From Chelydra serpentina (lineage: Eukaryota > Chordata > Testudines > Chelydridae): a stretch of 64,000 bases of DNA. Each line of letters opens with the position of its first letter. Positions within the stretch are counted from its first letter, which is position 1. The notes under the pieces were generated by a model. The model did not search any database. It worked only from the letters and a program-made list of their open reading frames with translations, and was not told the DNA's origin. The stretch lies in the NCBI GenBank assembly GCA_037349315.1, contig JBAIAC010000018.1:12028001-12092000 (forward strand). Reading direction: 5' to 3'. The translations under genes were made by a program, and so were the position numbers. Positions 15,190-53,409 of this stretch are shown piece after piece.

Positions 15190-15193
15190 ATGA
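15190..15193. repeat. ERV target-site duplication, left
   Basis: ATGA directly precedes the LTR start and also follows the 3' LTR at 23942-23945. A 4-bp duplication is the size made by gammaretroviral integrases. Confidence 0.8.
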
Positions 15194-15549
15194 TGATAGA
15201 AAAGGCCTAAAAATTAACAAGCACAGGCCGTATCTTCCTCTCTTTCTCTGGCTTTAGCTCAAAGAGGGGCCTAGGGACTGGAATAGCGAGCGAGACCTAG
15301 GAATCAAGGACAGGACATGTATCTAGTCTCACATTAAATCATGTTAACTATTTACTAATTAGTCCGCTTGGCATAAAAGTATATGCAGCTGTTTTCTCAT
15401 GTATCCTTAAAAATATGTAATACCAAAGGTCAAGGTATGTACCCCATATTCCCTTCTAAATGATAAATGTATCCGCAACAGATGTGTCCTATATCCCCCT
15501 CCCCAAAATTATGTATCCTGTGTGACCTGTTATCTATAGGTTAGTATAA

Positions 15550-15556
15550 TGACGTA
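15550..15556 (+). promoter_or_regulatory. CRE half-site-like motif in U3
   Basis: TGACGTA lies about 25 bp upstream of the TATA box. It matches an ATF/CREB half site by sequence only; binding is inferred. Confidence 0.35.
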
Positions 15557-15579
15557 TATTAAAGTTGTTTGTTACTGAT

Positions 15580-15587
15580 TATAAAAG
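15580..15587 (+). promoter_or_regulatory. LTR TATA box
   Basis: TATAAAAG occurs in U3 about 75 bp upstream of the poly(A) signal. It would place transcription start near 15610. The identical motif is at 23767-23774 in the 3' LTR. Confidence 0.8.
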
Positions 15588-15662
15588 GGGCTCATGTCGC
15601 CCATGTAAAGTGTGCTCTTCTCTGGCATTAGTCGAGAAGAAACACCCGCTCAGCTGAACGAA

Positions 15663-15668
15663 AATAAA
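15663..15668 (+). terminator. LTR poly(A) signal, 5' copy
   Basis: AATAAA is followed by a T-rich stretch (cttcttgttctcc). It lies downstream of the expected start and so inside R, as in many gammaretroviruses. Confidence 0.75.
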
Positions 15669-15756
15669 GGTGTGGTACCCGTCTTCTTGTTCTCCGTGCC
15701 TCCTTGGTGGAATTGGGTAAGCTCCAGGGGGAAACGGGCCCTATTTGGCTAACAAT

Positions 15757-15774
15757 TGGCGACTCCGCCGGGAC
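15757..15774 (+). other. Primer-binding site, tRNA-Arg-like
   Basis: TGGCGACTCCGCCGGGAC begins two bases after the LTR CA. Its first nine bases fit the complement of a tRNA-Arg 3' end (TGGCGACTC); the remainder departs from the vertebrate tRNA-Arg(TCT) form I recall. A Pro, Glu or Lys primer fits worse. The choice of Arg is an inference. Confidence 0.65.
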
Positions 15775-16388
15775 TTCTCTCCCTGTAGAGGACGCTGACC
15801 GGCGGCCGAGGGCGATTCTGAGGAGTGGCCACCTCGAGCTATTGGTTTGCTCGGGCCTTGGGTCGTCACAATCGGCCGGGGCGGCTGCGTCCTCTCTCAA
15901 GAGAACTCCTAACGACACGGAGGCGAGACGGTGCCAGAAGACGGGGAAGGTCCAACAGCCGGACGCGGCCACTCCGGGCGGTAAGTGCGTTTTACCTTTT
16001 GGGTTTAAAGGATATAACGCCCCCGCAGTGTGATTGGACCTCATAGGTAACCCCGGTGTGGGAAGGTATTGTGGTTGCTTAAAGGTTATGTTAAGCAAGC
16101 CAGGCAGTTAATGAATAATACCACTAATTTCACGAGCCCGTGGGCTGTACTGGATAATTACTGGGATATAGAGCAGCCCCAGGGCTTGTTGTTGTTTTTG
16201 GGGGGAGTATTGTTTTTCTTTATATTGATGATGTATTGGAGGCCAAAATTATGATAACCAGGTCTAGGACTTAAACCGACTCCAGCCGCCCTGAGACTCC
16301 TGCGAGGGGAAACCCCGTGACCAGGATATCTTAATCGCAAGGGGGGTCGGTCGAACCCGTGACCAGGTTTTAACTGCACACAAGCATA
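15775..16388 (+). other. ERV leader: splice donor and packaging region
   Basis: About 610 bases lie between primer site and gag ATG. gcg|gtaagtg at 15980/15981 is a strong candidate splice donor for the env mRNA, and a second donor-like site, tag|gtaacc, lies at 16046/16047. The two blocks aaccccgtgaccagga and aacccgtgaccaggtt (16311-16326 and 16354-16369) form a direct repeat just before gag. Packaging function is assumed by position only. The leader ORF is listed separately. Confidence 0.55.
16111..16254 (+). CDS. Leader small ORF, possible membrane microprotein
   Basis: The frame is open from 16051, and the first ATG at 16111 gives 47 codons. Residues 2-8 contain two N-glycosylation sequons (NTT and NFT), and a strongly hydrophobic stretch (about residues 25-43, ending FFFILMMYW) could span a membrane. 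It lies between the candidate splice donor and gag, in a different frame from gag, with a TAA closing the gag frame at 16371-16373, so it is not a simple upstream Gag extension. Known gammaretroviruses place a membrane-anchored glycosylated Gag leader here; whether this is an analogue is speculation. It may equally be a chance ORF. Confidence 0.3.
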   Translation: MNNTTNFTSPWAVLDNYWDIEQPQGLLLFLGGVLFFFILMMYWRPKL

Positions 16389-18017
16389 ATGGGGTCCGGA
16401 CAAAGCATCTATGCTGGGACGCCCTTAGAATGTATGTTAAATAATTGGAAGGCGTTTAGACGTCAAGCTGATTATGGAATGCCATTATGTAAGGATGCTT
16501 TGATAAAATTCTGCACTGTAGAGTGGCCAACATTTGGGGTGGGGTGGCCCGCTGGGGGAACATTGAAGTTGAAAATTGTAGAAGCTGTGCATAACGTTGT
16601 AACTAGGGATGGACATTGGGACCAGTACCCCTATATAGATATCTGGCAGGATCTTACGGCTAATCCTCCCCCCTGGTTGCAAGAGTGTAGAGCCCAAGCC
16701 ATTAGGGCCTTAATGGCTCAGACCCCGGGTCAGCGTCAGGGTCGTCCCCCCGTGAAAAGACCCTGTCCACCAGCCGTGATTCCTACCGCCCCTGATCCTA
16801 TGCCCCCTCCCCCAGTGTATCCTGGCCTCCCGGCCTCCCCGGCACAGCCCCTCGTAGTGGCCACCCCAGAAGACAGCCCACCCCGCGATTCAATGACCCC
16901 AGGAGATAACTTGGAGGACAGTAGCGGGGAGGGCGGTAGTAGTCAATCTACAGATTCGGTAGCAAACCACACGAGGAATAAAAGTAAATGGCAAGTGAAA
17001 GGCAATCCGGGGGACATAAAATTTGCTATCACCAAGAGCCCCGTGGTAAATAAAAACACAGCCGAAATAGACCCGATGCTTGAACTGCCCCTAAGGGAAA
17101 CTGTGGGTCCTACTGGTGACCTCACTATGATATATGTTCCCTTCACTACAAGTGACTTGTATAATTGGAAGCACCAGAACCCCTCATTCTCAGAGGACCC
17201 CGCCCCGTTAACAGCAGTTTTCGAGACTTTGGTCTCGGCCCATAACCCTACTTGGGGCGACATGAAAATCGCTCTCAACACCCTGCTAACTGCAGAGGAG
17301 AGGCGTTTAGTCTTTTCAAAGGCCAAGGAGGGACTGGTGGCAGGAGGAGTGGACGCAGCTGACGTACCCACTATGCTCCCTGAGACTGCGCCCAATTGGC
17401 CACATACAGATGCAGAAAATCGAGGTTACCACCACAGATATGCCTTAGCTATAGTACAAGGGATGAAACGTTGTATTAGAAAGACCCCAAATTGGGCTAA
17501 GCTGTACAATATTCGGCAGGAAAAGAATGAGAACCCAGCCGCTTTCTACGAGCGCCTGTGTAACACTTGTAAAAGATACACAGACCTAGACCCAGAGGAT
17601 GTCAATGGAAAGCGAGTGCTCATTCCCCTTTTCATCGGGCAGTCCTATGAGGACATTCGAAAAAAATTACAAAAAATAGATGGAGCATCGGGTAAAAATA
17701 TAGAGGAGCTCTTGGAGATTGCACTAAAAATTTATGATCGCAGGGATGATGAAGAAAGGAAAAAGGGGGCCCGCCTACTGGCAATGGCCCTGAAGGGGGA
17801 GAGTGGGAAAGGGGGGGCCAACACTAAGGGACAAACAGGAGTGCAGGAGAAGGGAAGAGGCTCCCGTTTGGGACGGAATCAGTGTGCTATTTGTAAGGAA
17901 GAGGGACACTGGAAGAATGAGTGCCCCCAGCGACATAACAGGAGGGAGGGAAGCAGGAATAGGACTCCACCTGCGCCCGTTTTCTATAACGCGGCGCACG
18001 GAGAGTCGGCTGTATAG
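16389..18017 (+). CDS. gag: Gag polyprotein (gammaretrovirus-like)
   Basis: This 542-residue Gag precursor would build the particle: matrix, a proline-rich linker, capsid and nucleocapsid. Gly2 after the initiator suits N-myristoylation for membrane targeting. The matrix motif VEWPTFGVGWP is at 44-54. The linker at 112-175 holds a PPVY late-budding motif at 141-144. Capsid begins near 230 and shows SDLYNWKHQNPSFSEDP (255-271) and a major homology region at 375-390 (pattern I-x-Q, E381, F386, RL). Nucleocapsid has one zinc knuckle, C499-X2-C502-X4-H507-X4-C512, the gammaretroviral number. The start is a real ATG; the frame is closed just upstream by TAA at 16371-16373. The ORF ends at TAG 18015-18017, in frame with pro-pol. 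No internal defect is visible. Confidence 0.95.
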   Translation: MGSGQSIYAGTPLECMLNNWKAFRRQADYGMPLCKDALIKFCTVEWPTFGVGWPAGGTLKLKIVEAVHNVVTRDGHWDQYPYIDIWQDLTANPPPWLQECRAQAIRALMAQTPGQRQGRPPVKRPCPPAVIPTAPDPMPPPPVYPGLPASPAQPLVVATPEDSPPRDSMTPGDNLEDSSGEGGSSQSTDSVANHTRNKSKWQVKGNPGDIKFAITKSPVVNKNTAEIDPMLELPLRETVGPTGDLTMIYVPFTTSDLYNWKHQNPSFSEDPAPLTAVFETLVSAHNPTWGDMKIALNTLLTAEERRLVFSKAKEGLVAGGVDAADVPTMLPETAPNWPHTDAENRGYHHRYALAIVQGMKRCIRKTPNWAKLYNIRQEKNENPAAFYERLCNTCKRYTDLDPEDVNGKRVLIPLFIGQSYEDIRKKLQKIDGASGKNIEELLEIALKIYDRRDDEERKKGARLLAMALKGESGKGGANTKGQTGVQEKGRGSRLGRNQCAICKEEGHWKNECPQRHNRREGSRNRTPPAPVFYNAAHGESAV

Positions 18018-18045
18018 GGAGGCCGAGGGACCCAGCGGCCTCTCC
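18015..18045 (+). promoter_or_regulatory. Gag stop-codon readthrough signal
   Basis: The TAG at 18015-18017 is followed by GGAGGCCG, a purine-rich context as in gammaretroviruses. GAGGCCG at 18019-18025 is exactly complementary to CGGCCTC at 18036-18042, giving a 7-bp stem with a 10-base loop immediately after the stop. pro-pol continues in the same frame with no start of its own, so occasional decoding of TAG as an amino acid is the expected route to Gag-Pol. A fuller pseudoknot is possible but not shown. Confidence 0.75.
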
Positions 18046-21000
18046 TAGCGGCACAACCCGCTGGTCTGGATCCCACGGTTATAATTGAGGTAGGGGGCCG
18101 CCCAATTGAAGCCCTGATTGATACAGGAGCTGCCCTCAGCTTGCTTCCCCTTGCAGAGGCTCCCCGGGGGAGGGCTCAAGGGTGGGCTGTAGTTCAAGGG
18201 ATAGAAGGACAAAGTGTAAAATTGGAAAAATCTCTTCCTCTCCTAGTAAAAGTAGGAGACTGTCATATATCCCACCAATTCGTTTGTAGCCCCTCCTGTC
18301 CCATTGCGCTGCTAGGACGAGACCTGCTTACTAAACTGCAAGCGGAAATCTCGTTCAACAATAATGGGACTCTGGAGGTTAGGCTCCCTAAACAACAAAT
18401 TTCCAACTATCAAATGGCCCTTTTAAATGTTAAAAATCCTCCCCCAGCACGGCAGGAAAGCGAGAAGAATCAACTGTCAGGGGTTAACCCTGAGGTCTGG
18501 GCTGAGGAGGGAGGTTTTGCTCGGGCTCGAAATGCTTTGCCAGTACACATTTCCCTTAAGGAGGGAAGCCGTCCAGTCCGAATTCGACAATACCCCCTTA
18601 AGTTAACCACTCGGATCGGACTTAAACCTTTAATTCAAAAGTTTTTGCAGTGCGGGTGGTTAAGGGAAGGCACTTCCCCATATAATACTCCAATAATGGG
18701 AGTGCCTAAGCCTAATGGGCAATATCGATTAGTCCAGGACCTGAGGCAGGTTAATAAGTTGATAGAAGCTCCCTATCCAGTTGTCCCAAACCCCCATACT
18801 ATTTTGAGCCAAGTCCCCAAGAGTCACGGGTGGTTCTCTGTGATAGATTTAAAAGATGCTTTCTTTTCCATACCCCTAGATCAAGAGTCCCAGAAACTGT
18901 TTGCCTTTGAATGGGAAGATCCAGATACCCATTACAAGGCTCAGTATCTCTGGACTGTTGTCCCCCAGGGACTGACTTGTGCACCCGAGATCTTTGGCAG
19001 CCAGCTAAAAAGAGACCTGGCCCCGTTCCTAGCTGCACATCTCTCATGTAACATAGTTCAATACTGTGACGATTTACTCCTAAGTACTGACACAGAGACT
19101 ACTTGTAAGGAGCATACAATAGAGCTCCTTAACTTTCTTGGAGCTCAGGGATACAAGGTCTCTAGGGAAAAAGCCCAATTGGTTAAACAACAGGTTACTT
19201 TTCTTGGATATCATCTTTGGCAGGGACGTCGTAGCCTAGGTAAGGATAGGATTCAGGCAATACTTGAAAGCCCTCAACCCCGAAATCCCAGAGAGCTAAG
19301 GGCTTTTCTGGGACTGACCGGTTTTTGCCGGCTCTGGATCCCCGACTATGGAGGAAAGGCTAAACCATTATATGAGTCCCTCACTAAGGAGGGTCTGCTT
19401 ACCTGGGAATGGACTAAAGAAAAAGAAAAAGCATTTCAAGAGCTTAAAGAAGCCTTGGTTCAGCCTCCTGCACTGGCTCTTCCGGATCCCCGAAAGCCGT
19501 TCACTCTATACGTTCATGAAAGAAAAGGGGTGGCATCCGGGGTTCTGTGCCAAAGGTCGGGACCGGCCTGGCAACCTGTGGGTTATTACTCCAAGGTGTT
19601 GGACCCAGTTGCCAAGGGCTGGCCAGCCTGTTTACGAGCCGTAGCTGCAACCGCTCTTCTTGTACAGGAGGCTGAGAAACTAACCTTGGGTGGGGACACT
19701 GAAGTTGTGGTACCCCATGGAATACCCCAGGTATTGGGAACAGGAGCCGGGGAAAAGCATTTAAACCCCAGTAGGCATACTAGATATGAGGTGGGACTTT
19801 TGCTGGCCCCTAACCTAACTTTTAAAACAGTTAGTTCCCTTAATCCAGCTACTTTACTGCCAAATCCCCAAGTCCCTTATGGGGCTAGTCCCACCCATGA
19901 CTGTATTGAAGTTTTACAACAAGAGACTAAACCTCGTCCTGATCTTTCAGATTTACCCTGGCCCAACCCTGATATTGAAATGTATGTAGATGGATCTAGT
20001 TATGTAGAAGATGGTAAGCGATTTACAGGAGCAGCCGTCATAGTGAAAGAGGGAGAAGTGTACAAGTTTAAGCTTAGCCCCAACCTATCTGCCCAGGCGG
20101 CGGAATTGGTGGCTCTTATTGAGGCGCTCCAAAGGGGAATTGGAAAGACTATTAATGTATACACTGACAGTCGTTATGCATACATGGTGGTGCATGCCCA
20201 CGGAACTCTATGGAAAGAAAGGGGTTTTATTACAGCCTCAGGCCAAAGAATAGCCCATGGGGCTCTTATTAAGACACTACTTGAGGCCCTGATGCTTCCC
20301 CTCCGGGTTGCAGTGATACATGTGCGTGCACATGGGAGGGCCCCTGATACTGACCAGCGAAAGTATAATCGATTCGCTGATCAAGCCGCGAAAGAAGCCG
20401 CACGAGAAGGGGCCATATGGCTCCTTTGGGTCCAAAATACAGAAGCCAAAACCCCGGATCCCCACTATACAGCAGAGGAAGTATCCCACGCCCAGGCGGC
20501 AGGGGCCCAATTAACTCCCACTAGGTGGTGGAGATTGCCAGGAGGGGAAATCTTTGTACCTAGACCAGTACTTCAGGAGATTCTCCTATCCCTACACAAG
20601 GAGGGACATTTGGGATCAGGAGCCATGGTCGACTTAATCAGCCGATCTATTCGGGGATTGGGTGCACATATGGAAGCCCAAAGAATTGTAAATAACTGTT
20701 CTGTTTGTCAGCGAACAAACCAAAAGGGGTGCGGTCCGCCTGCCCCAATGGGAGGTCGGCCCTGGGCTGCCTACCCTTTTCAGAGATGGCAAGTGGACTT
20801 TGCTGAAGTCCCCCTTTGTAGGGGTTATAAGTACTTGCTTGTCTTTGTTGATCAATTGACTGGATGGGTGGAGTGCTACCCTACACGACATTGTCAGGCG
20901 CGAGCCGTTACCAAGGCTCTGTTACATGAAATACTTCCCCGCTTCCACCTCCCGGAGGTGATTGAATCGGACCGAGGAAGTCATTTTATCTCCCAAGTGG

Positions 21001-21707
21001 TTCAGCAGGTGTCACGAGCCCTTGGGATCCAATGGAAATTACACACGCCCTGGAGACCACAAAGCTCGGGCCAAGTGGAAAGAATGAATAGGACTCTTAA
21101 AGACACTCTTACAAAACTGTGCATAGAATCTGGGTTAAAGTGGCCTGATGCCCTACCACTTGCCCTTACTCGCATTCGGAGGGCCCCACGTAAGGGTTTA
21201 AAACTTTCACCCTTCGAACTGGTCTTTGGGTTTCCTCCCCGAGTACTCATCCCGGGATACCGAGAGGACATAAACTGGGAAGTAGGAAATGACTCTTTAT
21301 GGAAACAGGTATCTGCGCTACAATCTGTTTTGTTACAGTTACATCGATACGCAGCACCTTTCCAGACTCTCCCTTTGGAACAACCGGTGCATTCCTTCCA
21401 GATCGGTGATCAGGTCCTTGTTAAAAAGTGGAAACGTGATCCACTCACGCCGAGGTGGGACGGTCCGCATACTGTATCGCTCATCAGCCAGGCCGCTGTT
21501 AAGGTCCTTGGAAGCGACAAATGGACACATCATTCCCGAGTAAAGCGGTTCCTGAGCCCGGATCCAGAGGACAGTCTAACTGAGGAGGACACCAGCCCTC
21601 TGTCCTCTCCGGCTCCGGAAGCCCGGAGTGACACAGGCGAAGACTCTACCTGGGAGTATCAAGAATTGGAAGGACTAAAAGGACTGTTTAAAAGACAGAA
21701 ACAATGA
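18018..21707 (+). CDS. pol: Pro-Pol: protease, RT, RNase H, integrase
   Basis: There are 1,229 residues after the TAG, made as a readthrough extension of Gag. Numbering from the first codon after TAG: protease active site LIDTGA with catalytic D35, and LLGRD at 98-102; reverse transcriptase about 190-480, with D277 and the catalytic box YCDD at 349-352; RNase H about 649-800, with D658, E696, D717 and D788; integrase zinc site H860, H864, C894, C897, then catalytic D927, D985 and E1021 with 35 residues between the last two. A C-terminal RWDGPH segment (near 1146-1151) stands where many relatives have GPY or GPF. YCDD instead of the usual YVDD is notable. The end overlaps the env ATG by four bases (ATGA). 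No stop or frameshift interrupts it. Confidence 0.95.
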   Translation, partial: GGRGTQRPLLAAQPAGLDPTVIIEVGGRPIEALIDTGAALSLLPLAEAPRGRAQGWAVVQGIEGQSVKLEKSLPLLVKVGDCHISHQFVCSPSCPIALLGRDLLTKLQAEISFNNNGTLEVRLPKQQISNYQMALLNVKNPPPARQESEKNQLSGVNPEVWAEEGGFARARNALPVHISLKEGSRPVRIRQYPLKLTTRIGLKPLIQKFLQCGWLREGTSPYNTPIMGVPKPNGQYRLVQDLRQVNKLIEAPYPVVPNPHTILSQVPKSHGWFSVIDLKDAFFSIPLDQESQKLFAFEWEDPDTHYKAQYLWTVVPQGLTCAPEIFGSQLKRDLAPFLAAHLSCNIVQYCDDLLLSTDTETTCKEHTIELLNFLGAQGYKVSREKAQLVKQQVTFLGYHLWQGRRSLGKDRIQAILESPQPRNPRELRAFLGLTGFCRLWIPDYGGKAKPLYESLTKEGLLTWEWTKEKEKAFQELKEALVQPPALALPDPRKPFTLYVHERKGVASGVLCQRSGPAWQPVGYYSKVLDPVAKGWPACLRAVAATALLVQEAEKLTLGGDTEVVVPHGIPQVLGTGAGEKHLNPSRHTRYEVGLLLAPNLTFKTVSSLNPATLLPNPQVPYGASPTHDCIEVLQQETKPRPDLSDLPWPNPDIEMYVDGSSYVEDGKRFTGAAVIVKEGEVYKFKLSPNLSAQAAELVALIEALQRGIGKTINVYTDSRYAYMVVHAHGTLWKERGFITASGQRIAHGALIKTLLEALMLPLRVAVIHVRAHGRAPDTDQRKYNRFADQAAKEAAREGAIWLLWVQNTEAKTPDPHYTAEEVSHAQAAGAQLTPTRWWRLPGGEIFVPRPVLQEILLSLHKEGHLGSGAMVDLISRSIRGLGAHMEAQRIVNNCSVCQRTNQKGCGPPAPMGGRPWAAYPFQRWQVDFAEVPLCRGYKYLLVFVDQLTGWVECYPTRHCQARAVTKALLHEILPRFHLPEVIESDRGSHFISQVVQQVSRALGIQWKLHTPWRPQSSGQVERMNRTLKDTLTKLCIESGLKWPDALPLALTRIRRAPRKGLKLSPFELVFGFPPRVLIPGYREDINWEVGNDSLWKQVSALQSVLLQLHRYAAPFQTLPLEQPVHSFQIGDQVLVKKWKRDPLTPRWDGPHTVSLISQAAVKVLGSDKWTHHSRVKRFLSPDPEDSLTEEDTSPLSSPAPEARSDTGEDSTWEYQELEGLKGLFKRQKQ

Positions 21708-23350
21708 AACCATCCTTTGTATTTCTGGTCTGTATGTTTACTTATGCATATAATTGGGAAAATAGCTTTCTGCAACTAGGGGAATTAATAGCAGACTCTT
21801 TTAACCTTACTAATTGCTGGGTATGTGGCGGTCCGGGAGAATTAAATGAATGGCCCTGGGTAGCTCAGCCAGTACAGCCTAAGTGGTGGCTAAGTAGCTT
21901 AAGCATAGTACATAAGGGAACAGGAAGGTGGACTGAGAACCAGGGCCCCTGGCGACTCTATGCTGCTGGAGTAGGTGTCTTTTGTCTTAATCGAACGAGA
22001 CATGAGGGAAAATATATGGGGGAAAGCAAATGTGAATGGACCCTATCCTTGGGCTTTGATTGCTGGGATCCTCACTGTCGCCCATATGACTGTTTAAAGT
22101 ACCAAGGGCGATGGAACCTTACCCATGTAAAGCTGACTAACAATAGCTGGGTAAAGTGTTCCTACTGGCGTCACAGGGGTGCTGGCTGTAAAGCAGTGGG
22201 ATTAGATGGGTACTTTGATGCCCTCTTCCTAAGCTGCCAGCGGGACAATACCACTGACAAAAATCATGTGGTACGGTGGTATCAATGGGCGTGGCAACAC
22301 CGTAATGGAACCCGGGTTACCCATTTTCGACAATTTTGGGCTAGTACTAATAACCCCAGATTTGGTTGTAACTGTGTATGGAAGGCAGGAGCTGGAGCAT
22401 GGAAATGCGACTACTGTAACCCAAATGTAGACAACTTCCTGGGGGGACCTATAGAATCAGGCAACGCTCTCTATTACGAAGAGCCGGGTCCCGCCGATTC
22501 TCCCGAGACCTGGGATGGCCCCTTTGCTAATGGAGTCTGGGCGTTGAAAGGTCACTATTGGATCTGCGGATTTTATGCTTATCGGAGGTTGCCTCCAAAT
22601 TGGTCAGGAATATGTTATATAGGATATATTAGACCTTTATTCTTTCTTTTACCTCAAGCCCAAGGAAGTAAATTGGGAATTAAAGTGTATGATGATTTGG
22701 TTAGGGAAAAACGGTCTTTAGACTCCACTTTAACCGCTGGAAGTTCCCAAAATTGGGGAGCTCAAGAATGGCCCCCTGAAAGAATTATTAAACATTATGG
22801 ACCGGCCACCTGGAATCCCAGTGAACTGGTAACCGGGGCCAGGGAACCGATTTACAATCTAAATCGAATTATTAGGCTCCAGGCTATTTTGGAAATAGTA
22901 ACCAATCAGACGGCCGCAGCACTGGATCTCTTGGCCGATCAATCAACTCAAATGAGACATGCAATTCTCCAGCATCATATAGCTCTTGACTATTTGTTAG
23001 CAGAGGAAGGGGGACTCTGTGCAAAATTGAATGAATCTAACTGCTGCTTACAAATAGACGATAATGGCCAGGCAGTGAAACAGTTAACCAAAGAAATGAG
23101 AAAAATAACCCATGTCCCAGTACAGACCTGGAACGGTTGGGACACGGATTGGTTTACCTCCTGGCTACCGCAATGGGGATGGTTACGGAAAGGTTTCCTC
23201 CTTTTTATACTCTTTATTACCATCCTATTAACAATTGCTTGCTTTGCCCCATGCTTAATTGCAATGATTCGCAAGCTGGCTGGTCAAGTTACATACCAGC
23301 AAATGATGATCTTGTATAAACCTGAAGGGACTGAGGCGCAAAGCCCATAA
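21704..23350 (+). CDS. env: Envelope glycoprotein precursor (SU-TM)
   Basis: The 548-residue precursor has a hydrophobic N-terminal signal (about 1-16), a surface subunit with CWVC at 38-41 (a CXXC motif as in gammaretroviral SU), and a furin-type site REKR at 334-337. The transmembrane subunit holds a heptad-rich helix (about 385-430), an immunosuppressive-domain-like stretch before EEGGLC, a disulfide motif C439-X7-C447-C448, and a membrane anchor at about 498-520. The tail contains YQQM. N-glycosylation sequons include N34, N96, N138, N146, N182, N201, N299, N401 and N443, the last inside the disulfide loop. Most relatives have CX6CC. No hydrophobic fusion peptide directly follows the cleavage site. 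Expression would need a spliced mRNA, probably from the leader donor. Confidence 0.93.
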   Translation: MKPSFVFLVCMFTYAYNWENSFLQLGELIADSFNLTNCWVCGGPGELNEWPWVAQPVQPKWWLSSLSIVHKGTGRWTENQGPWRLYAAGVGVFCLNRTRHEGKYMGESKCEWTLSLGFDCWDPHCRPYDCLKYQGRWNLTHVKLTNNSWVKCSYWRHRGAGCKAVGLDGYFDALFLSCQRDNTTDKNHVVRWYQWAWQHRNGTRVTHFRQFWASTNNPRFGCNCVWKAGAGAWKCDYCNPNVDNFLGGPIESGNALYYEEPGPADSPETWDGPFANGVWALKGHYWICGFYAYRRLPPNWSGICYIGYIRPLFFLLPQAQGSKLGIKVYDDLVREKRSLDSTLTAGSSQNWGAQEWPPERIIKHYGPATWNPSELVTGAREPIYNLNRIIRLQAILEIVTNQTAAALDLLADQSTQMRHAILQHHIALDYLLAEEGGLCAKLNESNCCLQIDDNGQAVKQLTKEMRKITHVPVQTWNGWDTDWFTSWLPQWGWLRKGFLLFILFITILLTIACFAPCLIAMIRKLAGQVTYQQMMILYKPEGTEAQSP

Positions 23351-23367
23351 GCTCTTAAAATGTTTTT

Positions 23368-23378
23368 AAGGGGGGAAG
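23368..23378 (+). other. Polypurine tract (plus-strand primer)
   Basis: AAGGGGGGAAG lies two bases upstream of the 3' LTR, the standard place for the plus-strand DNA primer. It is intact. Confidence 0.85.
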
Positions 23379-23380
23379 CT

Positions 23381-23941
23381 TGATAGAAAAGGCCTAAAAA
23401 TTAACAAGCACAGGCCGTATCTTCCTCTCTTTCTCTGGCTTTAGCTCAAAGAGGGGCCTAGGGACTGGAATAGCGAGCGAGACCTAGGAATCAAGGACAG
23501 GACATGTATCTAGTCTCACATTAAATCATGTTAACTATTTACTAATTAGTCCGCTTGGCATAAAAGTATATGCAGCTGTTTTCTCATGTATCCTTAAAAA
23601 TATGTAATACCAAAGGTCAAGGTATGTACCCCATATTCCCTTCTAAATGATAAATGTATCCGCAACAGATGTGTCCTATATCCCCCTCCCCAAAATTATG
23701 TATCCTGTGTGACCTGTTATCTATAGGTTAGTATAATGACGTATATTAAAGTTGTTTGTTACTGATTATAAAAGGGGCTCATGTCGCCCATGTAAAGTGT
23801 GCTCTTCTCTGGCATTAGTCGAGAAGAAACACCCGCTCAGCTGAACGAAAATAAAGGTGTGGTACCCGTCTTCTTGTTCTCCGTGCCTCCTTGGTGGAAT
23901 TGGGTAAGCTCCAGGGGGAAACGGGCCCTATTTGGCTAACA
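23381..23941 (+). repeat. 3' LTR
   Basis: Identical by reading to the 5' LTR. The TATA box is at 23767-23774 and AATAAA at 23850-23855; the latter would end the proviral transcript. It is followed by the second ATGA (23942-23945). Confidence 0.97.
23850..23855 (+). terminator. ERV poly(A) signal, functional copy
   Basis: AATAAA in R of the 3' LTR, with a T-rich downstream stretch. It is expected to define the end of the genomic and env mRNAs. Confidence 0.75.
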
Positions 23942-23945
23942 ATGA
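23942..23945. repeat. ERV target-site duplication, right
   Basis: ATGA matches 15190-15193. Confidence 0.8.
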
Positions 23946-32526: not shown

Positions 32527-34492
32527 TATTTATAGATTCCATAGATTCATAGATTCTAGGGCTGGAAGGGACCTCGAGAGGTCATCGAGTCCAGCCCCCT
32601 GCCCTCATGGCAGGACCAATTACTGTCTAGACCATCCCTGATAGACATTTATCTAACCTACTCTTAAATATCTCCAGAGATGGAGATTCCACAACCGCCC
32701 TGGGCAGTTTATTCCAGTGTTTAACCACCCTGACAGTTAGGAACTTTTTTCCTAATGTCCAACCTAAACCTCCCTTGCTGCAGTTTAAGCCCATTGCTTC
32801 TTGTTCTGTCCTCAGATGCTAAGATGAACAAGTTTTCTTCCTCCTCCTTATGACACCCTTTTAGATACCTGAAAACTGCTATCATGTCCCCTCTCAGTCT
32901 TCTCTTTTCCAAACTAAACAAACCCAATTCCTTCAGCCTTCCTTCATAGGTCATGTTCTCTAGATCATTCTTGTTGCTCTTCTCTGGACCCTCTCCAATT
33001 TCTCCACATCTTTCTTGAAATGCGGTGCCCAGAACTGGACACAATACTCCAGTTGAGGCCTAACCAGCGCAGAGTAGAGCGGAAGAAATGACTTCTCGTG
33101 TCTTGCTCACCACACACCTGTTAATGCAGCCCAGAATCATGTTTGCTTTTTTTGCAACAGCATCACACTGTTGACTCATATTTAGCTTGTGGTCCACTAT
33201 AACCTCTAGATCCCTTTCTGCCGTACTCCTTCCTAGACAGTCTCCTCCCATTCTGTATGTGTGAAACTGATTGTTCCTACCTATGTGGAGCACTTTGCAT
33301 TTGTCCTTATTAAACTTCATCCTGTTTACCTCTGACCATTTCTCCAATTTGTTCAGATCATTTTGAATTATGACCCTATCCTCCAAAGCAGTTGCAATCC
33401 CTCCCAGTTTGGTATCATCTGCAAACTTAATAAGCATACTTTCTATGCCAATATCCAAATCATTGATGAAGATATTGAACAGAGCTGGTCCCAAAACAGA
33501 CCCTTGCGGAACCCCACTCATACCTTTCCAGCAGGATTGGGAACCATTAATAACTACTCTCCAAGTACAGTTATCCAGCCCGTTGTGCACCCACCTTATA
33601 GTAGCCCCATCTAAGTTGTATTCCCCTAGTTTATTGATAAGAATATCATGCGAGACCGTATCAAATGCCTTACTAAAGTCTAGGTATACCACATCCACCG
33701 CTTCTCCCTTATCCACAAGACTCGTTATCTTATCAAAGAAAGCTATCAGATTGGTTTGACATGATTTGTTCTTTACAAATCCATGCTGGTTATTCCCTAT
33801 CATCTTACCACCTTCCAAGTGTTTGCAGATGATTTCCTTAATTACTTGCTCCATTATTTTCCCTGGCACAGAAGTTAAACTAACTGGTCTGTAGTTTCCT
33901 GGGTTGTTTTTATTTCCCTTTTTATAGATGGGCACTATATTTGCCCTTTTCCAGTCTTCTGGAATCTCTCCTGTCTCCCATGATTTACCAAAGATAATAG
34001 CTAGAGGCTCAGATACCCCCTCTATTAGCTAGGATGCATTTCATCAGGTCCTGGTGACTTGCAGGCGGCATCTAACTTATCTAAGTGATTTTTAACTTGT
34101 TCTTTTTTTATTTTATCTTCTAAACCTTCCCCCTTCCCATTTGCATTCACTATGTTAGGCATTCCCTCAGACTTCTCGGTGAAGACTGAAACAAAGAAGT
34201 CATTAAGCATCTCTGCCATTTCCAAGTTTCCTGTTACTGTTTCTCCCTCCTCACTGAGTAGTGGGCCTACCCTGTCCTTGGTCTTCCTCTTGCTTCTAAT
34301 GTATTGATAAAAAGTTTTCTTGTTTCCCTTTATTCCTGTAGCTAGTTTGAGCTCATTTTGTGCCTTTGCCTTTCTAATCTTGCCCCTGCATTCCCGTGTT
34401 GTTTGCCTATATTCATCCTTTGTAATTTGTCCTAGTTTCCATTTTTTATATATGACTCCTTTTTATTTTTTAGATCTTGCAAGATCTCGTGG
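32527..34492 (-). mobile_element. 5'-truncated CR1 LINE inserted in hAT copy 2
   Basis: The 3' end, with tcatagattctagggctgg in plus orientation, lies at the low-coordinate edge. The body includes an RT open frame at 33060-33935 and pieces of the pre-RT and post-RT regions in other frames. About 140 bases of the hAT arm are missing at the junction, so insertion was accompanied by a target deletion. The endonuclease end of ORF2 and all of ORF1 are absent. Confidence 0.9.
33060..33935 (-). pseudogene. CR1 ORF2 reverse transcriptase fragment
   Basis: This 291-codon open stretch carries the RT core of a CR1 LINE, which would copy CR1 RNA at a nicked chromosomal site. Visible motifs are NYRPVSLTS (14-22), YLDFSKAFDTV (84-94), PQGSVLGP (143-150) and the catalytic FADD (171-174). 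The frame ends at a stop just after SALLCAG. The C-terminal continuation ([14 protein letters not shown] and following) lies at 32721-33044, and an upstream piece ([11 protein letters not shown]) at 34025-34225 is in another frame. The element is therefore non-functional, though RT itself is surprisingly open. Confidence 0.85.
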
Positions 34493-41604: not shown

Positions 41605-42579
41605 TCAACCCGAACTCTTCGCAAGCTCTGGAAAAGCGGTCAGACGCTGGAGATCGATTTCTGTGTGGGTGGCCAGGGCAGCGTCGTCTACAAACAGCAT
41701 GTCTCTTATTGTTGCCTCCCGTACCTTGCTTTTGGCCTTTAGTCGAGCCAGATTGAAAAGTCTCCCGTCAGACCGGGTGTGGAGATAGACTCCCTCTGTG
41801 GAATTTCCAAAGGCATGTTTCAGCAACGCTGCGAAGAAGATGCCGAAGAGTGTGGGAGCGAGAACGCAGCCTTGTTTTACTCCACTGTGGATATCGAAGG
41901 CATCGGAGGACGAGCCATCATACAGTACTGTGCCTTTCATGTTGTCGTGAAAAGACTGGCTCACGCTCAGCAGCTTCGGTGGGCAGCCAATCTTTGCCAG
42001 GATCTTGAACAGCCCATCTCTGTTCACAAGGTCGAAAGCTTTGGTCAGGTCTATGAAGGCAAGGAGTAGCGGCTTATGCTGTTCTCTGCATTTCTCTTGC
42101 AGCTGCCTTAAGGAGAAAACCATATCGGTTGTGGATCTCCCTGCTCGGAACCCGCACTGTGACTCTGGGTAAACTCTGTCAGCAAGCTTCTGCAGTCTGT
42201 TCACGATCACGCGTGCGACATCCCAGCACCGACAGAGGAGGTCATGGAGGTGTTCTAGGAGGACATTGATGCCACACTTGATAACTTCTGGTGGGATGCC
42301 ATCCTTTCCTGGAGCCTTTCCTGTGGACAAGCTCTCAATGACTTTCTTCAGTTCTTCCATGGTGGGCTTCTCGTCCAGCTCAGTTTCAACAGGAAAACCA
42401 TCCACGGTATTGAGGGCAGCTTCGGTGATGGTGTTTTGCCTGGAGTACACTTCAGAGTAGTGCTCCACCCATCTATCCATCTGCTTGCTCTTGTCCTGGA
42501 TGTTTTCGCCTGTTGCAGACTTTAGTGACACTCTCCACTTCTTTGTGGGTCCCATGGCCTTCTTGATGCCATCATACAT
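41605..42579 (-). pseudogene. LINE reverse transcriptase (broken ORF, part 2)
   Basis: An open stretch of 324 codons. Motifs present are GKAPGKDGIPPEV, SQCGFRAGRSTTD, FIDLTKAFDLVNR, GVKQGCVLAPTLF and catalytic FVDD. Between CRCWD and VARVIVNRLQK the block with the NYRGI-type motif found in intact relatives is missing without loss of frame, so a core RT part has been deleted. The reading frame ends at a stop near 41605 and resumes at 41568. Confidence 0.82.
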
Positions 42580-42659
42580 TCCCCTGATGTTTCCAGTGTC
42601 AGCAGATAGTTGAATGCTCCGGCAGAGCTGGAGCCAGTAATCATTTGCACACTGTCGAG

Positions 42660-43889
42660 CTAGTCTCTGTACTTTGCTTCTGGCAAATCGATACTCTTGT
42701 AGAGTCCTATGACTGGGGGAACGCTTATACTCCAGGTGAACAGCGCGGATGGTTCTTCAATGGCTGGAGTGAGTGTGGCGGAGTTGGCCTCAAACCAGTC
42801 ATTGTTCATTTTTCGTTTCTTTCCAAAAACTTTCACGGCTGTGCTGTGTACTGCGTCTCTGATGTGGTCCCATCTCTCTTTGGCGCAGCCACCGGGAGGC
42901 ATGCAGTTCAGCACCTCGGAGAGCTCATGGGTAAATTTCTCTGCTTTGTCTGGGTGTGCGGTCTTGCTCACATCAATGCGGGGTTTGCCCTCTGGCCTAG
43001 AGCGATGAATCTTCTTTGGCTGTAGCTTCATCTTGCTGCACACCAGCAAATGATCACTGTCGCAGTCAGCACTGTGGAAGGTGCGAGTAAGCAGGACGCA
43101 CTTCAAGGCAGAACGCCTGATGATGATCAGGTCGAGTTGGTGCCAGTGCATGGAGCGAGGGTGTCTCCAGGACAGTTTGTGTTGAGGCTTTGTCTGGAAG
43201 AATGAGTCGGTGATGCTGAGGTCATGGTACGAGCACAGTTCCAGAAGTCGTTGTCCATTCTCATTCATTTCTCCAACGCCAAACTTTCCAAGACAGGTTG
43301 GCCAAAAGTCATGGTCAGCGCCCACTCTGGCATTGAAGTCACCCAGTAGTATCAAGTGCTCTTCTTTAGGGATACTCCTGATGATCGTGTCTAACTGGTC
43401 GTAGAACTCGTCCTTGGTATCCCTGGTGGCGCTGAGTGTTGGTGCATACACGCTGATCAGGTTGACGGGTCCAGTGGATGTGTGGAGTTGGAGTGATAAC
43501 AGTCTTTCAGTTCCTTGTTGACCAGGTTCCACCCTCCCCAGTAAAGCATTTCTTACAGCAAATCCAACACCACACTCTCTGATTTCTTCGGCACTCTTCC
43601 CTTGCCAGAAGAACGTATAGTTCTTTTCCCTGAGAGTCCCAGCGTCTGGCAGCCATGTCTCCTGCAATGCGACTATGTCGATTTGGAGTCGTGCTAGCTC
43701 ATCGTTGATGACTGCAGTCTTCCGAACATCGCTGATTGCCTGAAGGTCTTGTGATAGGCCAGCTGTCATGGTCCGTACATTCCAGCATCCTAACTTGAGG
43801 GCTGGTTTCTTATGTTGGTTTTCTTTTGTTGTTGCCTGGTGCATGGTTCGCAGTTCACTTATCGGGTACTCACGTACACTAAGCCCCAC
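42660..43889 (-). pseudogene. LINE endonuclease domain (broken ORF, part 1)
   Basis: An open stretch of 409 codons. The AP-endonuclease-like domain that would nick target DNA starts at GCWNVRTM and shows LQIDIVALQETW, the catalytic region LLGDFNARVG, and a terminal SDHLLV segment. The frame then leaves the LINE protein near 42700, where the downstream RT continues in another frame. The CpG-rich sequence differs sharply from the AT-rich surroundings, as expected for an inserted gene body. Confidence 0.85.
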
Positions 43890-44444
43890 GCACCCAGTGA
43901 AGCAGGTGAACTGTGGCGGGACAACACCTTATTGGCTGGGGGCTGCCCAGCTTCAGGTGGGCGATAGTTTTCCAGTGAGACGTGGTGATCCCTCCCACCG
44001 TCGGAAGCAACCCTTGGTGACAGCTCTATGCCAATTGAGCAGGAGGCTTATAACCGGTAAACTGTTGCTTCCCGTGTTGTATCGACGCTGTGAGGCAAAG
44101 CTGGAGTGTCCTCTCCAGGGCGCAAGCCAGGGCAGGGTGATATGGAGGAACAGCTGTTGCCCATGCAGCAGAACCCCCCTCTCCACGCAACTGATGGATC
44201 CAAGGGAAAGACAATGTCGATACAACTTGGCACCAGTGGCGTCGCAGGAGTTGCCGGAATGACGTTGAGGACAATGTCAGACCGCCATCGGGACTCCGAC
44301 ACCAGATTTGGTTTCAGGGTTGACTCCCTTAGCCTTTCCCATGAGTGGGTATTGCCACAAGGCAGCGGAGGTTTTAAATCAGAGTTTTCCTTGTCCTAGG
44401 TGGGCTGCCTTCCAAGGCTAACGAGCCCCACCTGCCCGAAGGAC

Positions 44445-53154: not shown

Positions 53155-53409
53155 TTCATAGATTCATAGATTCTAGGGCTGGAAGGGACCTCGAGAGGTC
53201 ATCGAGTCCAGCCCCCTGCCCTCATGGCAGGACCAATTACTGTCTAGACCATCCCTGATAGACATTTATCTAACCTACTCTTAAATATCTCCAGAGATGG
53301 AGATTCCACAACCGCCCTGGGCAGTTTATTCCAGTGTTTAACCACCCTGACAGTTAGGAACTTTTTCCTAATGTCCAACCTAAACCTCCCTTGCTGCAGT
53401 TTAAGCCCA
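53155..53409 (-). mobile_element. CR1 LINE 3' tail fragment
   Basis: Near-identical to 32532-32788. It runs from tcatagattctagggctgg to ccctccttgctgcagttt-type sequence in plus orientation, and holds only the 3' untranslated region and the last codons of ORF2. Confidence 0.9.

What the first reader, a model, noticed from the sequence alone, without database searches (positions are those of the whole stretch)
15190..23945. Complete, apparently very young gammaretrovirus-like provirus
The two LTRs read as identical across 561 bp with one constant offset, the 4-bp duplication is intact, and gag, pro-pol and env are all open. Seen directly: no stop, frameshift or indel breaks a core motif. Identical LTRs imply little time since integration, so the locus may be polymorphic or lineage-specific.
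Basis: partly seen in the sequence, partly recalled or inferred. Interest (0 to 1): 0.88.

Follow-up and report, generated by a model that had tools for sequence, protein, structure and literature searches.

The report
Young turtle retrovirus, still spreading recently
A complete, recently inserted retrovirus sits in this turtle genome as one of a family of near-identical copies whose envelope gene was kept working by natural selection, although that envelope seems to lack the usual membrane-fusion segment.

Summary
Two 561-bp LTRs are identical at 561 of 561 sites, flanked by ATGA duplications, with gag, pol and env open and an in-frame TAG between gag and pol. Assembly collapse is disfavoured: of 19 LTR pairs compared, 15 are internally identical and 4 differ at 1-3 sites; the 18 other pairs differ from the window's LTR by 1-11 sites, and 18 of 19 pairs have a 4-bp duplication. 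Alone, identical LTRs bound the age only at 1.3-11.6 My; the pooled mean is 0.16-1.4 My, by assumed rate. Polymorphism was not testable. Env variants in 8 close copies are 12 synonymous, 2 replacement, 1 late stop (P=7e-5), pointing to spread by infection. Copies sharing one env deletion (15 of 15 short copies read) also multiplied. The virus is gammaretrovirus-related but outside the PERV-containing cluster in my tree, with YCDD in RT and an ERV3-type Env with CX7CC and no hydrophobic TM start. The host is probably a snapping turtle or near kin (inferred).

The parts
15190..15193 (.). left target-site duplication ATGA
15194..15754 (+). 5' LTR, 561 bp, TG...CA; TATAAA at 15580, AATAAA at 15663
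15757..15774 (+). primer-binding site TGGCGACTCCGCCGGGAC, two bases after the LTR; that it complements a tRNA-Arg(UCU) 3' end is recalled, the genome test did not complete
   Evidence: the same 18 bases in 19 of 19 copies
15775..16388 (+). leader; 4 GACG motifs (15791, 15927, 15940, 15962)
16389..18014 (+). gag, 542 aa: MG start, MA, PTAP and PPVY late-domain-like motifs, p30 CA, one CCHC knuckle
18015..18017 (+). in-frame TAG between gag and pol (readthrough arrangement); downstream fold not above shuffles, z -0.88
18018..21704 (+). pro-pol, 1229 aa: protease (DTGA), RT, RNase H, integrase (HHCC and D-35-E pattern matches), MLVIN_C; its stop 21705-21707 overlaps the env start
19062..19073 (+). 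RT active-site motif YCDD instead of YVDD
21704..23350 (+). env, 548 aa plus stop, ERV3-type Env; CWVC in SU, REKR cleavage site
22766..22819 (+). TM residues 355-372 (WPPERIIxxYGPATW block), lowest entropy of the ten blocks of Env that I defined, not hydrophobic
23018..23047 (+). CX7CC in TM
23368..23378 (+). polypurine tract AAGGGGGGAAG
23381..23941 (+). 3' LTR, identical to the 5' LTR
23942..23945 (.). right target-site duplication ATGA

Best explanation
It is a recently integrated, complete provirus of a turtle lineage of class I (gammaretrovirus-related) retroviruses. Shown: LTR identity, duplication, open frames, many near-identical copies at other sites, and constraint on env and pol between copies. 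Inferred: copies entered the germ line one by one by infection or reinfection from a small, changing virus population, because LTR differences between copies are mostly shared by both LTRs of a copy (so they predate integration, unless conversion has evened them out) and env stayed under selection. Copies with one shared env deletion also multiplied, which needs either intracellular retrotransposition or help in trans from complete copies.
For: LTR identity and duplication; domains; 40 of 40 scored LTR matches at 98-100%, scored out of 471 candidates; 13 env copies at 97% or more over all 548 residues; 15 of 19 LTR pairs identical, 18 of 19 with 4-bp duplications; env of 8 close copies against the window 12 synonymous, 2 replacement, 1 stop, neutral synonymous share 0.292, P=7e-5; pol halves 33:15 and 19:12 synonymous to replacement, P=3e-7 and 1e-3; 15 of 15 short copies read share one env junction.
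Against: The scored LTRs were those most like the window, so the sample leans to young copies. 15 distinct env variants are few. A stop 3 residues before the end of Env is shared by 3 of 13 copies, so Env was not whole in every spreading copy. Constraint on gag is weaker: ratio about 0.55 with all 8 copies, and 8 synonymous to 7 replacement in the 5 copies that could be placed ungapped, untested. 6 of 9 other full-length copies have a stop, a frame shift or a divergent gag. Only 6 of 19 pairs have private LTR variants; several copies share one LTR sequence.
Confidence: 0.82

Rival explanations
1. The family spreads only inside germ cells by retrotransposition from one master copy; env is a passenger.
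For: Env-deleted copies did multiply: 15 of 15 short copies read carry the same junction, and their LTR pairs are as alike as those of complete copies (8 env-deleted pairs: 6 identical, the others with 1 and 2 differences). 7 LTRs of 4 complete copies are one and the same sequence.
Against: Env of the complete copies is constrained, and the 38 LTRs form 18 distinct sequences, not one master.
Confidence: 0.12
2. The LTR identity is an assembly product and the provirus is old.
For: Collapsed repeats are a known hazard; the reads were not available.
Against: The window's LTR sequence is in neither LTR of any of the 18 other pairs compared, 6 of 19 pairs have private variants in both LTRs, 4 pairs do differ by 1-3 bases, and all frames are open.
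Confidence: 0.03
3. The insertion is young but long fixed (up to a few My), not polymorphic. This fits with the best explanation and concerns only the first reader's guess.
For: Slow rates leave an upper bound of 2.7-11.6 My for rates of 1e-9 to 2.3e-10.
Against: The pooled mean of the 19 pairs is 0.33-1.43 My for the same rates, but that is a mean of the nearest copies, not the age of this one.
Confidence: 0.45

Closest known systems
ERV3 / HERV-R Env (annotated 'endogenous retrovirus group 3 member 1 Env')
   Same: The two best named Env hits bear this name. CX7CC is in 104 of 121 sequences (window and 120 relatives); in 102 of these 104 the start of TM is not hydrophobic by my measure.
   Different: Human ERV3 is described as a cytoplasmic protein lacking leader, membrane span and fusion peptide (PMC3717959, passage); here a hydrophobic leader and span are present and the gene is young and under selection.
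Turtle proteins of the same lineage (Gopherus evgoodei env P0001, Gopherus flavomarginatus pol P0124, Chelydra serpentina pol P0125 and gag P0242)
   Same: 93.2% over 548 (env), 92.6% over 774 (pol), 98.1% over 641 (pol), 17 mismatches over about 453 shared gag residues.
   Different: Deposited as separate, mostly uncharacterised proteins. My paper searches listed no title on this lineage, but I saw only listings and passages; [quoted passage not shown]
Genus Gammaretrovirus (MLV, PERV)
   Same: 4-bp duplication, one CCHC, in-frame TAG, p30 CA, MLVIN_C.
   Different: CX7CC, YCDD, no hydrophobic TM start, outside the cluster with PERV in the RT tree.
Env-less 'superspreader' ERVs (recalled, no paper read)
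   Same: Copies without a whole env multiplied.
   Different: Here env-bearing copies are also young and constrained in the same genome.

Membership tests
Class I endogenous retrovirus | 4-bp target duplication | tested here: met
   window ATGA; 18 of 19 copies 4 bp, one looks like 5 bp; class trait from PMC4299795, passage
Class I endogenous retrovirus | 1-2 zinc knuckles in gag, GPF/Y motif or equivalent after integrase | tested here: met
   one CCHC and PF18697 MLVIN_C; traits; the GPF/Y letters themselves were not looked for
Genus Gammaretrovirus | gag and pol in one frame split by a stop | tested here: met
   TAG at 18015; actual readthrough not testable
Genus Gammaretrovirus | CX6CC in TM (called rigidly conserved in gamma-type TM, PMC3758190, passage) | tested here: not met
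   CX7CC
Genus Gammaretrovirus | hydrophobic N-terminal fusion peptide | tested here: not met
   highest 15-residue mean hydropathy in the first 45 residues after REKR is -0.25, against 3.05 for the same protein's membrane span and 1.36 for its leader; no MLV-type Env was run as control
Genus Gammaretrovirus | RT groups with PERV and mammalian gammaretroviruses | tested here: not met
   midpoint-rooted FastTree of 37 sequences (window and 36 of 120 listed hits), 470 columns; groups with turtle and then archosaur sequences, support 0.93
ERV3-type Env | best sequence similarity to ERV3-named Env, shared TM block and CX7CC | tested here: met
ERV3 / HERV-R | arginine tRNA primer | tested here: inconclusive
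   PBS fits tRNA-Arg(UCU) as recalled; the genome pattern search did not complete

The most novel reading that the evidence does not exclude
ERV3-type Env is a separate, functional kind of retroviral entry protein whose conserved WPPERIIxxYGPATW block, not a hydrophobic N-terminus, engages the membrane; it occurs from sharks and rays to mammals among the relatives found, and this turtle virus is a recently active member of that kind, so the missing fusion peptide of human ERV3 would be inherited rather than lost.
Probability: 0.35. Interest if true: 0.82.

Novelty: new variant of a known kind. Interest (0 to 1): 0.6.

Why it matters
ERV3-type envelopes are known mostly from old or damaged loci (recalled). 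A young, selected copy makes it testable whether an Env without a classical fusion peptide and with CX7CC works in entry. The same genome also shows constrained env-bearing copies, env-deleted copies and a G-to-A edited copy side by side, which lets the routes of germline spread and the host response be compared.

Tried and rejected
Assembly collapse of the LTRs: disfavoured on 19 pairs. Gene conversion as cause of LTR likeness: not tested. Readthrough fold: not above shuffles (z -0.88, 38 of 200 shuffles as good). Env structure model: poor in TM (pLDDT under 50 for residues 320-445), so it says nothing on the fusion element; Foldseek's only match at E under 0.001 is Syncytin-2 (7oix, E 2.2e-4, but TM-score 0.16/0.30 and rmsd 20.6), so weak. 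Viral contig scan with an RT piece: no relative. Rfam: no match in the window. Other family copies in the rest of the window: none. An LTR tree did not separate env-deleted from complete copies. A count of all copies, a tRNA check and a Chelydra gag check by the genome search did not complete.

Full report
Observation. The two LTRs were compared base by base: 561 of 561 sites agree at a constant offset of 8187, and the element is bracketed by ATGA. Two bases (AT) lie between the LTR's CA end and the primer-binding site, and a polypurine tract ends two bases before the 3' LTR. gag, pol and env hold no internal stop; gag and pol lie in one frame split by TAG, and env starts on the last bases of pol. 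Pfam finds the core domains. Pattern matches for DTGA protease, YCDD, HHCC and D-35-E integrase motifs are present.

Genome context. The window is C18:12028001-12092000 of a 2.28-Gb assembly of 806 contigs. An LTR search scored 40 of 471 candidates, all 98-100% alike. An env search scored 79 of 968 candidates and gave 13 copies at 97% or more over 548 residues; 10 of the 13 carry no stop, 3 share a stop at codon 546, and one of the 10 has lost its start codon. The 1-kb left flank has one full-length place in the assembly; its 22 other matches are short. So no empty allele could be read. The right flank was not searched.

Age. 19 LTR pairs (window plus 18) were compared: 15 identical, 4 with 1, 3, 1 and 2 differences, 7 of 10,659 sites in all. 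18 of 19 have a 4-bp duplication, one looks like 5 bp. The 38 LTRs form 18 distinct sequences; 6 of 19 pairs have private variants in both LTRs, and several copies share one sequence. Of the 10 full-length pairs, 8 are identical. Rates are the weak point: 2.3e-10 is quoted for Chrysemys picta in PMC13221643 in a sentence on per-generation rates (passage), and I used it as a slow yearly bound; 5e-10, 1e-9 and 2e-9 are round assumptions. For the window alone the 95% upper bound is 11.6, 5.3, 2.7 and 1.3 My; the pooled mean is 1.43, 0.66, 0.33 and 0.16 My. The sample was picked by likeness to the window, so it leans young.

Selection. Against the window, distinct variants in 8 close copies are 12 synonymous, 2 replacement, 1 stop in env (P=6.9e-5), and 33:15 and 19:12 synonymous to replacement in the pol halves (P=3.0e-7 and 9.6e-4). 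gag with all 8 gives 42:55 (P=0.003, ratio about 0.55), but one copy has a divergent gag with 89 substitutions; without it and the two frame-shifted copies it is 8:7. The G-to-A edited copy was left out of these counts, and the three further env copies on C62 and C8 were read only (11:4, 34:13, 31:17). Because the LTRs within a copy agree, most LTR differences between copies arose before integration, unless conversion evened them out. 3 of 9 other full-length copies have all frames open in the pieces read; I single out none.

Env-deleted copies. 15 of 15 short copies read share one junction (window 21996 to 22988), a loss of about 994 bases that shifts the frame (length from its coordinates). 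8 of the 9 short LTR pairs carry it; the ninth, on C62, keeps env. One copy's LTR spacing (7193) equals 8187 minus 994, so it may have only that loss. The LTR tree does not set these copies apart from complete ones.

RT. In 120 listed pol relatives the first Y-x-DD-[LIVM] match is YCDD in 5, the five closest, four from turtles and one unnamed; 110 have YVDD or YIDD, 5 have none. At the aligned position in 37 sequences: YVDD 29, YCDD 6 with the window, YIDD 1, YVDY 1. One search of the held library for YCDD with reverse transcriptase gave 2 papers, both on bacterial RTs by title and abstract (listing).

Env. 104 of 121 sequences (window and 120 relatives) have CX7CC, none has CX6CC alone, 17 have neither. 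The relatives were found by likeness to this Env, so uniformity is partly built in. PMC3758190 calls CX6CC rigidly conserved in gamma-type TM (passage). No held paper has CX7CC with envelope and retrovirus. After REKR the highest 15-residue hydropathy in the first 45 residues is -0.25; it is at most 0.5 in 102 of the 104, of which 76 had a recognised cleavage site and 28 were taken from a fixed distance. The window Env's own membrane span scores 3.05 and its leader 1.36. That classical fusion peptides are strongly hydrophobic is recalled; no MLV-type control was run. Residues 355-372 have the lowest entropy of ten blocks that I defined, in 28 Envs (0.55 bits; next 0.74 for residues 382-450). 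That a loss of the fusion peptide is in print for human ERV3 I saw in one passage (PMC3717959).

Relatives and host. Env is 93.2% identical to a Gopherus evgoodei protein over 548 residues, pol 98.1% to a Chelydra serpentina protein over 641, and gag has 17 mismatches to a Chelydra protein over about 453 shared residues. First-half pol pieces of other copies here reach 99.4% to that Chelydra pol, but the same Chelydra gag has at least 16 mismatches to every gag piece held; a different Chelydra Env (P0005) matches this genome at 99%. The host is therefore probably Chelydra or near kin (inferred). A 93% Env match to a tortoise, together with youth, suggests movement between turtle families; turtles are called transmission hubs in PMC6001957 (abstract and passages).

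Editing. One copy (C14:78897779-78906522) differs from the window by 71 substitutions in the gene pieces, 55 of them G to A, 50 of these before A against 485 of 1772 background Gs (Fisher P=9e-24); its two LTRs share their 8 changes, 7 of them G to A. This fits a cytidine deaminase at reverse transcription. G-to-A editing of LINEs is in print for a lizard (PMC3880073, abstract); a search with turtle among its terms listed 7 papers, none on turtle proviruses by title.

Noticed in passing
G000:C14:78897779-78906522 (L017, L018, L049, L061, L070, L079): A full-length copy with an APOBEC-like footprint: 55 of 71 substitutions G to A, 50 before A; env start codon lost, stops in two gene pieces.
   Followed up: partly
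G000:C34:18125382-18134169 (L060): A copy with Env identical in protein and LTRs 4 sites from the window's, but a gag with 89 substitutions and several indels, which suggests recombination with another gag lineage.
   Followed up: partly
G000:C8:130753200-130762500 and C8:103198800-103208100 (L080-L083): Two copies with 97-98% Env; one has LTRs 85% like the window's, in the other only part of one LTR (90%) matched where looked for, so Env and LTRs may have different histories.
   Followed up: partly
window 33060-34028 and 41605-43928, minus strand: ORFs with RVT_1 and endonuclease domains, LINE-like (CR1 is a guess).
   Followed up: no
window 32540-32793 and 53157-53409: A 254-bp stretch repeated at 99.6% identity.
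   Followed up: no
G000, many contigs: 21 of 92 Env rows, all at 72-77% identity, list exactly one TGA and one TAG; if these are the same stops (not checked), one dead Env copy was itself multiplied.
   Followed up: no
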